From positions 62,001 to 126,000 of the forward strand of contig JAQTOU010000002.1 of assembly GCA_028713125.1 (NCBI GenBank): a DNA stretch of 64,000 nucleotides. Reading direction: 5' to 3'. The notes beneath the pieces were generated by a model. The model was not told the origin of the DNA. It ran no database searches and saw only the letters and a list, made by a program, of their open reading frames with translations. The DNA is from Elusimicrobiales bacterium. Its GTDB lineage: Bacteria > Elusimicrobiota > Elusimicrobia > Elusimicrobiales > UBA9959. Numbering within the stretch: position 1 is the first letter of the stretch; the number at the start of each line of letters is the position of its first letter. Positions 40,470 through 56,440 of this stretch are shown here, piece after piece. A program made the translations under genes and the position numbers.

Positions 40470-40488
40470 CTTCCACATGGTTCTGGCC

Positions 40489-40615
40489 GGGCGGTACGGC
40501 GACCGGAACGCAAAACGCGTTCGGCCACACCGTGGCCTCACTCGGTATTCGCCCGCCGGGCTATGCAACCGGCGGGCTCAACGACGGTTTTGCTAACCCG
40601 GCCGCCGTGCCACCC
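40489..40615 (+). other. Structured repeat element A
   Basis: A 127-nt palindrome-rich element. The ends pair: 40489-40506 with 40598-40615 at 16 of 18 positions. Inside, GCAAAAC (40510-40516) pairs GTTTTGC (40587-40593) after an internal loop of AAC against TAAC. Two hairpins follow: GGCCAC-ACC-GTGGCC (40523-40537) and a perfect 9-bp stem (40551-40559 with 40569-40577) whose loop contains TATGCAA. It matches elements at 55681-55880 and 56178-56311. The remainder of the 272-nt gap before 40742 holds only weak promoter-like sequence (TTGGTT 40688, TGATAG 40711). Confidence 0.8.
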
Positions 40616-40741
40616 TTAACCCCATCCTTTGCGCAGTTTTCAAAGCAAAGTATCCAAAGTTACATTTGACCGAAATTTGATAATTTTTTGGTTTTTACCG
40701 TATTCCCCTCTGATAGAGTATTAACGTGGAAAGGAGGGGTT

Positions 40742-55642: not shown

Positions 55643-55680
55643 TTCTTTAAGTAAAAGGTAACGGCAGGCTTGCAAGTTCG

Positions 55681-55880
55681 CGGGCGGCTGAGGGACAGGA
55701 ACGCAAAAACGTTGTCACTGCGGTGTCCTGGCAGAAACGCAGGATAGTGTAGTCCACCCGCACACCGTGCTCGCAACTCCCGCTCACTGCAGTGGCCGCT
55801 GCGGCCACCCGCCCTTTCCCGCGCTTACGCAAGCGTCGGGCTCCGAGAGGGTTTTGCTAACCCTGTCCCACAGCCGCCCG
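55681..55880 (+). other. Structured repeat element B
   Basis: A 200-nt element 38 nt after tRNA-Gln. The ends pair at 17 of 18 positions (55682-55699 with 55862-55879). Then GCAAAAAC (55703-55710) faces GTTTTGC (55851-55857) across the same AAC/TAAC internal loop as element A. Inside lie CACACCGTG (55761-55769), a 7-bp hairpin GTGGCCG-CTG-CGGCCAC (55792-55808) and a CCCG-CGCTT/AAGCG-CGGG hairpin whose loop has TACGCAA (55826-55832). Confidence 0.8.
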
Positions 55881-55890
55881 GTCCAATTAT

Positions 55891-56157
55891 ATGCCTGCCG
55901 CATCCCTAAAAATAAAATCGTGGACCGTGTATATCGTGCGCTGCGCGAACGGTTCCTTATATACCGGGATAACTAATAACCTGTCCGGGCGCATCGCCGA
56001 CCATAATTCCGGCAAAGGCGCCAAGTATACGGCCGCTTTCGGGCCGGTTGAGCTGGTCTGGAAGAAAAGGAAGAAAGACAGGTCCGCGGCCTCTATCCTG
56101 GAAGCCGCTATCAAGAAACTTTCCCGCAAAGAGAAAGATTCCCTCATTAAAAAATAA
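55891..56157 (+). CDS. Single-domain GIY-YIG endonuclease (UPF0213/YhbQ-like)
   Basis: An 88-residue protein made of one GIY-YIG nuclease fold: WTVYIVRCANGSLYTGITNN, then catalytic Arg in LSGRIADH, then SGKGAKYTAAFGPVELVW with the acidic E at the usual place. The C-terminus is Lys-rich. It lies between two structured elements of opposite orientation, 10 nt after element B and 20 nt before element C. There is no ribosome site; AATTAT is directly upstream. Such proteins may be repair-type or mobile endonucleases; the setting favours mobility but does not prove it. Confidence 0.85.
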   Translation: MPAASLKIKSWTVYIVRCANGSLYTGITNNLSGRIADHNSGKGAKYTAAFGPVELVWKKRKKDRSAASILEAAIKKLSRKEKDSLIKK

Positions 56158-56177
56158 GTTCCCCATTACCTTTAGGA

Positions 56178-56311
56178 GCGGGTGGCAAGGGTATGGGCCC
56201 GGAGCGACCTCTCGGAGGCCCGAGCTTGCATAAGCGCGAGGGCCGAGAGAGGAGGCGCGCGCACGGTGTGCGCGACGCCGTGAGCGACGGGCCCATGCCC
56301 CCGCCACCCGC
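56178..56311 (-). other. Structured repeat element C (opposite orientation)
   Basis: A 134-nt element related to A and B but read on the minus strand. The ends pair over 24 positions (56178-56201 with 56288-56311), 23 as minus-strand RNA with two G-U. Reverse-complement motifs: CACACCGTG at 56270-56262, TATGCAA at 56232-56226 in a GCTT/AAGC hairpin, and CTCGGGC-CTCCGAGAGG at 56224-56208 as in element B. Bases 56312-56440 before glmU show an AT-rich stretch without a clear promoter. Confidence 0.8.
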
Positions 56312-56440
56312 GAACCCCCTTTCTATTGAGGTTGAGCCTCGATAAATAATCATTCTTTCGCAGCAGGCGGCTATTTTTGTAGAATTTGGGTGTAGTCCTA
56401 TCCGTTATCTTAGATTTTCTCAGTCTTCTTTCTAAATACT

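What the first reader, a model, noticed from the sequence alone, without database searches (positions are those of the whole stretch)
55681..56311. A three-member family of folded elements (A, B, C) with shared motifs and compensating stems
Elements at 40489-40615 (+), 55681-55880 (+) and 56178-56311 (-) share CACACCGTG and, 36-65 nt later, TAYGCAA in a hairpin loop. A and B also share the AAC/TAAC internal loop between GCAAAAC-GTTTTGC and the outer stem, and a GGGCTC after the second hairpin; B and C share CTCCGAGAGG. The outer stems differ in sequence between A, B and C yet keep 16-23 pairs, so base changes on one side are matched on the other. B has one extra hairpin that accounts for its length. 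I do not recognise a known RNA family. It may be a new structured RNA or mobile palindromic repeat.
Basis: seen in the sequence. Interest (0 to 1): 0.85.

Follow-up and report, generated by a model that had tools for sequence, protein, structure and literature searches.

The report
Swappable hairpin repeats in Elusimicrobiota
The three folded elements are real and belong to a family of about a hundred dispersed, precisely folding repeats in the genomes of one family of Elusimicrobiota bacteria; they behave like mobile palindromic DNA whose chromosomal sites persist while the folded insert at each site is repeatedly replaced, sometimes back to front or by an unrelated hairpin.

Summary
A, B and C are members of a dispersed family: a covariance model finds 97 copies in this 3.48-Mb genome. 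In a sample of 150 genomes of the phylum, copies occur only in the window's own taxonomic family. Pairing is conserved through double changes (96.2% of cells paired; 24 of 37 pairs with two-sided changes; 0/500 shuffles). No Rfam family matches.

The best reading is a mobile palindromic DNA family, not an ordinary structured RNA gene. All 51 examined sites are intergenic, close to gene ends, in either orientation. All 22 adjacent pairs are convergent, 17 with a 42-45 nt linker.

The surprise is exchange. At 18 sites occupied in both this genome and a near relative (flanks mostly 85-97% identical), the cores are hardly more alike (73%) than random pairs (70%). Orthologous sites hold type I, type II, inverted or unrelated hairpins, or nothing. 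Identical 90-nt cores sit inside different, self-complementary outer stems. Wobble counts favour the strand opposite to the one drawn for A and B.

The mobilising or exchanging enzyme is unknown; the genome's one Y1 transposase belongs to a different, small REP.

The parts
40485..40620 (+). Element A, type I, single copy 15 nt after the stop of a response-regulator gene
   Evidence: CM hit 124.2 bits, E 2.3e-26; fold z -5.2; context
40507..40509 (+). A: AAC side of the conserved internal loop between outer stem P1 and P2 (partner TAAC 40594-40597)
   Evidence: sequence and alignment of 46 copies
40510..40515 (+). A: P2 5' strand GCAAAA (partner TTTTGC 40588-40593)
   Evidence: sequence; helix 2, 100% of cells paired
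40526..40534 (+). A: P3 apex CACACCGTG (CAC-ACC-GTG hairpin)
40562..40568 (+). A: P4 apex TATGCAA
   Evidence: sequence; invariant columns
55678..55884 (+). Element B, type I with two inserted hairpins, between a tRNA gene and a GIY-YIG ORF
   Evidence: CM hit 77.0 bits, E 1.1e-15; fold z -6.8
55713..55757 (+). B: optional hairpin inserted before CACACCGTG; absent from copies with the same core
   Evidence: comparison with L003, L012, L017
55761..55769 (+). B: P3 apex CACACCGTG
55785..55811 (+). B: second optional hairpin (CACTGCAGTGGCC...GGCCACCCG) inserted at the base of P4
   Evidence: comparison of copies with and without it
56179..56309 (-). Element C, type II; replaced by a type I element at the orthologous site of the near relative G179
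   Evidence: CM hit 66.6 bits, E 2.5e-13; ortholog
56262..56270 (-). C: P3 apex CACACCGTG

Best explanation
A, B and C are members of a family of non-autonomous, mobile palindromic DNA elements that behave like very large, mosaic REP/REPIN/BIME-type repeats. Each copy is a folded cassette of about 130-200 nt: outer stem P1, AAC/TAAC internal loop, P2, then hairpins P3 and P4 with conserved apices. Cassettes occur singly, or as a convergent doublet with a 42-45 nt linker between fixed short frames. Shown: high copy number, conserved pairing, intergenic 3'-biased placement, gain or loss of single and doublet units between near relatives, and persistence of sites while the cassette is exchanged, inverted or replaced by other hairpin families. 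Inferred: the DNA (or a single-stranded copy) extrudes as a hairpin or cruciform; breakage or template switching at this structure, repaired from another copy, replaces the cassette, and the self-complementary arms let it return in either orientation. The same process, or selection on the folded single strand, keeps the arms complementary. The conserved loops and wobble bias suggest recognition of one folded strand by an enzyme not identified here.
For: 97 copies in the genome. Double changes far above controls. 51/51 sites intergenic; 23/30 co-directional sites nearer the upstream stop than the downstream start (p 0.005); convergent gaps enriched (odds ratio 2.7, p 0.008); single elements between co-directional + genes lie 10 on one strand and 8 on the other. 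All 22 adjacent pairs convergent. Against relative G179: 18 sites occupied in both, core identity 73% vs 70% for random pairs, P1 arms 77% vs 62%, flanks mostly 85-97% identical, with two inverted cores. Four G179 sites (5 elements, one a whole ~425-bp doublet) are absent from G000. Across the genus, the A-site, 'b' and 'd' sites hold type I, II, III-like, unrelated hairpins or nothing. In this genome the frame CCGCGAGATGCNNAGTCGGGG carries type I, type II or family-3 hairpins. Identical cores sit in different complementary stems. Inverted doublets in extragenic space parallel REPINs (PMC3116915).
Against: No mobilising enzyme was found. The only Y1 transposase of this genome is flanked by a different small REP, 31 Y1 loci have no element nearby, and three genomes with 25-54 elements have no Y1 gene. 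No clean target-site duplication was recognised. Conserved unpaired nucleotides are more than a neutral palindrome needs. Exchange at non-composite sites such as C lacks obvious shared flanking homology.
Confidence: 0.6

Rival explanations
1. A functional structured RNA family: each copy is transcribed from the strand opposite to that drawn for A and B and acts in trans or as a 3'-UTR element, and selection for that fold causes the covariation.
For: Conserved apices and internal loops; in P1 G.U 5 vs A.C 28 on the drawn strand, i.e. 28 vs 5 on the other (p 7e-5); the opposite strand folds better in 121 of 133 copies; z-scores -5 to -7.5.
Against: About 100 copies, no fixed orientation to neighbouring genes, no promoter or terminator signal at A, B or C beyond chance, replacement of the element by unrelated hairpins at orthologous sites and absence in sister species. 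The wobble bias fits folded single-stranded DNA as well, and copies are not independent.
Confidence: 0.15
2. A domesticated 3'-end device: any strong hairpin behind a gene protects or ends its mRNA, so sites are kept and one hairpin family can stand in for another.
For: Elements sit just behind stop codons and are enriched between convergent genes; either orientation and several hairpin families are found at one site.
Against: Many orthologous sites have no hairpin at all (11 of 22 genomes at A, 11 of 18 at 'd', 12 of 20 at 'b'); no T-run follows the elements; does not explain the conserved complex core or identical cores at many sites.
Confidence: 0.12
3. A dedicated cassette-exchange system: a site-specific recombinase acts on the short inverted CCGG-NNN-GCAAAA junctions (or on the folded strand, as an integron integrase acts on attC) and moves hairpin cores between fixed sites.
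For: Cores swap and invert inside a retained outer stem (L347:18207 vs L293:14978; L229 vs L235); arms are better retained than cores at a site; frames carry unrelated cassettes.
Against: No recombinase was linked to the elements; exchange boundaries are not constant (some swaps replace P1 too); type II and family 3 lack the CCGG/GCAAAA junction.
Confidence: 0.1
4. Assembly artefact: short-read metagenome assemblies put the wrong repeat copy at a site.
For: Many contigs end inside elements (e.g. L025, L086, L310).
Against: A swapped core joined to its site's own stem needs reads across the junction; swaps recur in many independently assembled genomes; the element is about the length of one read.
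Confidence: 0.03

Closest known systems
REP / BIME / REPIN repeats mobilised by RAYT (TnpA-REP)
   Same: High-copy intergenic palindromes, inverted doublets with a fixed spacer, mosaic architecture, conserved loops and bulges, no coding capacity (PMC3116915, PMC8266576)
   Different: Cassettes are 130-200 nt with several stacked helices instead of 20-40 nt; no conserved GTAG tag seen; no RAYT association; the cassette at a fixed site is exchanged
CGTC-tagged palindromic repeats (incl. Neisseria dRS3, Rickettsia RPE-4/6)
   Same: Palindromic dimers without a dedicated transposase (PMC3733652)
   Different: Those have stems of 8-9 bp and a terminal unpaired CGTC; here P1 alone exceeds 12 bp and any GCGTC lies inside P1
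Mitochondrial repetitive or double hairpin elements and yeast GC clusters
   Same: Potentially mobile hairpin elements in intergenic DNA; several folded motifs; proposed recombination sites (PMC2800124)
   Different: Organellar and shorter; in the sponge elements stems are conserved and loops vary, the reverse of this family
MITEs
   Same: Non-autonomous intergenic units with inverted ends; the doublet is gained or lost as a unit
   Different: No target-site duplication or partner transposase found; internal folded cassettes are exchangeable
Integron attC sites
   Same: Recombination sites known, from general knowledge, to act as a folded single strand with variable stems and conserved unpaired bases
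   Different: No arrays, no gene cassettes, dispersed intergenic singles and doublets; integrase not tested

Membership tests
REP/REPIN (RAYT-mobilised) | Short imperfect palindrome of 20-40 nt with GTAG tag | tested here: not met
   Elements of 130-200 nt; no conserved GTAG beside the stem in the aligned copies
REP/REPIN (RAYT-mobilised) | Associated RAYT (Y1) gene | tested here: not met
   0 elements in 31 Y1 loci; G175, G183, G189 have elements but no Y1, G109 has 9 Y1 and no element
REP/REPIN (RAYT-mobilised) | Inverted doublets with fixed spacing, intergenic | tested here: met
   22/22 adjacent pairs convergent, 17 with gap 42-45; 51/51 sites intergenic
MITE | Terminal inverted repeats and target-site duplication | tested here: inconclusive
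   Composite ends share CCGCG-type inverted motifs, but no duplication recognised at four filled/empty sites
Known structured RNA family (Rfam 15) | Match at gathering score | tested here: not met
   Only tRNAs at gathering score in the window; best sub-threshold hits mir-631 E 0.13, Mcr7 E 1.1
Structured RNA (functional transcript) | Discrete conserved transcript | not testable with these tools
   No RNA-seq available
Intrinsic terminator | GC hairpin followed by T-run | tested here: not met
   No terminator-like site at A, B or C
Integron attC | R/L core sites and integrase-dependent arrays | not tested
   No arrays seen; the integrase was not searched for

The most novel reading that the evidence does not exclude
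A genome-wide hairpin-cassette exchange system: fixed chromosomal frames hold interchangeable folded cassettes drawn from several unrelated hairpin families, moved and inverted by dedicated machinery that reads one folded strand. This would be a kind of mobile DNA in which the site is inherited and the insert is traded.
Probability: 0.2. Interest if true: 0.85.

Novelty: new variant of a known kind. Interest (0 to 1): 0.63.

Why it matters
Interspersed bacterial palindromes are usually pictured as short hairpins that jump and then decay in place. Here the sites outlive their contents: folded inserts are swapped, flipped or replaced by unrelated hairpins while flanks diverge normally, and identical cores sit inside different self-complementary stems. 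That gives a natural data set for an open question, how palindromes keep their arms complementary and recombine in bacteria, in a phylum with almost no genetics. The covariation would fool a standard RNA-discovery pipeline into calling a riboregulator, so the G.U versus A.C count and the site-exchange test are useful controls for such pipelines.

Tried and rejected
RAYT mobilisation: rejected. The GIY-YIG ORF between B and C as the mobiliser: it lies between the elements in G179 too, and other doublets enclose only a linker, so it is treated as a neighbour gene. Viral carriage: 0 hits in viral contigs. Leading-strand orientation bias of single copies: 22/34, p 0.12, not significant. Intrinsic termination: no T-tail. 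Literature searches for palindromic or structured elements in Elusimicrobia returned nothing relevant among the results listed. MAFFT of only A, B and C misaligned B and C because of B's insertions. A first anchor regex failed and was replaced. A file of the own genome was not available, so pieces were fetched. Target-site duplications were looked for by eye at four filled/empty sites without a consistent result.

Full report
WHAT WAS CHECKED. The shared words are there and are not chance. Rfam has no match at gathering score besides tRNAs, and nothing convincing up to E = 5.

THE FAMILY. A word pattern found 24 copies in the genome. An alignment of 46 distinct type I copies gave a covariance model, which finds 97 copies in the 3.48-Mb genome and recovers A, B and C. 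A scan of a species-level genome collection hit mostly Elusimicrobia assemblies. In a 150-genome sample of the phylum, 11 of the 14 sampled genomes of the window's own family have copies and 0 of the 136 others do; within the family 29 of 40 genomes do, including all 13 sampled from the window's genus.

ANATOMY. From outside in: P1, a long stem whose sequence differs between copies; the internal loop AAC/TAAC; P2 GCAAAA/TTTTGC; then P3 with apex CACACCGTG and P4 with apex TAYGCAA. In type II (C), P1/P2 is replaced by GGCAAGGGTATGGG.../...CCCATACCCTTGCC, while the P3-P4 part is shared. Small extra hairpins are inserted in loops of some copies; B has two.

COVARIATION. 96.2% of cells pair; 24 of 37 pairs have changes on both sides; 247 cells change on both sides against 72 in shuffles; sliding the partner by 1-3 columns destroys the signal. 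In P1 pairs 1-10, over 116 distinct arm pairs, single departures are G.U 5 and A.C 28 on the drawn strand (p 7e-5, treating arm pairs as independent, which they are only in part). Read on the other strand these become 28 G.U and 5 A.C. The opposite strand also folds better in 121 of 133 copies, by 7.2 kcal/mol on average. The single-stranded form, RNA or DNA, is therefore probably the strand opposite to that drawn for A and B.

PLACEMENT. With a simple gene caller on fetched pieces of the genome, 51 of 51 element sites are intergenic. Of 49 with called neighbours on both sides, 14 lie between convergent genes, against 55 of 367 gaps overall (odds ratio 2.7 against the remaining gaps, p 0.008). 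In 23 of 30 co-directional sites the element is nearer the upstream stop than the downstream start (p 0.005). Orientation to genes is mixed. The table contains 22 adjacent pairs, all convergent, 17 with a 42-45 nt linker. No replication-strand bias was seen for singles.

EXCHANGE AT FIXED SITES. At 18 sites occupied in both genomes, core identity is 73% against 70% for random pairings (permutation p 0.04); P1 arms keep more of the site's identity, 77% against 62% (p < 1e-4). C is type II here and type I there; B has a different core there. Two cores are inverted at the same site (L341:3426 and L347:18207). Four G179 sites, one a complete doublet of about 425 bp, are empty here. Identical cores of about 90 nt occur in several different P1 stems, each complementary to itself, so core and stem do not travel as one inherited unit.

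ACROSS THE GENUS. At the A site, 22 genomes show type I in six (one inverted), other hairpins in three, remnants in two and nothing in eleven. At site 'd', 18 genomes: 11 empty, 7 filled with type I, type II, a third type, or an unrelated 'family 3' hairpin. At site 'b', 20 genomes: 12 empty or nearly so, 7 filled with different combinations, one with unrelated sequence. In this genome the frame CCGCGAGATGCNNAGTCGGG occurs 33 times (2 in the control); the 32 frames read carry type I, type II or family-3 hairpins, with one inverted and two truncated. Some copies look like fold-back products, e.g. L360, with TTAGCAAAAC on one side mirrored by GTTTTGCTAA on the other, and L402, in which the arms of two different copies are joined.

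MECHANISM. The pattern fits mobile palindromic DNA whose cassettes are replaced by recombination at the folded structure. Inserts are gained and lost as units (shown); contents are exchanged and inverted at fixed sites (shown); the route, by break repair from another copy, template switching or a recombinase, is inferred. The enzyme is unknown. Y1 transposases do not track the elements, and the genome's own Y1 gene sits among copies of a different palindrome, TATTGAGGTTGAGCCTCAATA.

CAUTIONS. Copies are related, so pair counts are not independent events. Gene calls are approximate. Assemblies are mostly short-read; contigs often end in elements, although swaps with both junctions assembled in many genomes argue against an artefact. 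No transcript data were available. 'Type III' and 'family 3' were recognised by eye and not modelled. The literature library holds open-licence papers only.

Noticed in passing
window 56324-56344; L163 (four copies around the Y1 gene, G000:C11:519591-519818): A classical small REP (TATTGAGGTTGAGCCTCAATA) lies beside element C and surrounds the genome's single Y1/RAYT gene, a likely REP-RAYT pair in this genome.
   Followed up: partly
L233 and L234 (A-site of G170 and G185): A different hairpin family with apex CGCACACAGTGCGC occupies the A-site in two genomes in opposite orientations.
   Followed up: no
L390, L381, L361, L359, L362, L360, L231; L409 and L421 in the window's genome: 'Family 3' long hairpin (GGAAACCCTTGCGTNGGTTTCCCCCC ... 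GGGGCCCCCCTTCC) shares frames with the type I/II elements.
   Followed up: partly
window 55891-56157: 88-aa GIY-YIG protein (PF01541, E 1.2e-18) between B and C; in G179 it is followed by an extra ~400-bp sequence before the C-site.
   Followed up: partly
L402 (G000:C11:364102) and L360: Hybrid elements whose left and right outer arms come from different copies or mirror each other, as expected from fold-back template switching.
   Followed up: no
L297 13909-14147 and the 'd' site orthologs: Inserts at this site share outer inverted motifs GACCGC(G)AG(A)TGC / GCA(C)TGC(G)GTC beyond the frame, possible true ends of the mobile unit.
   Followed up: no
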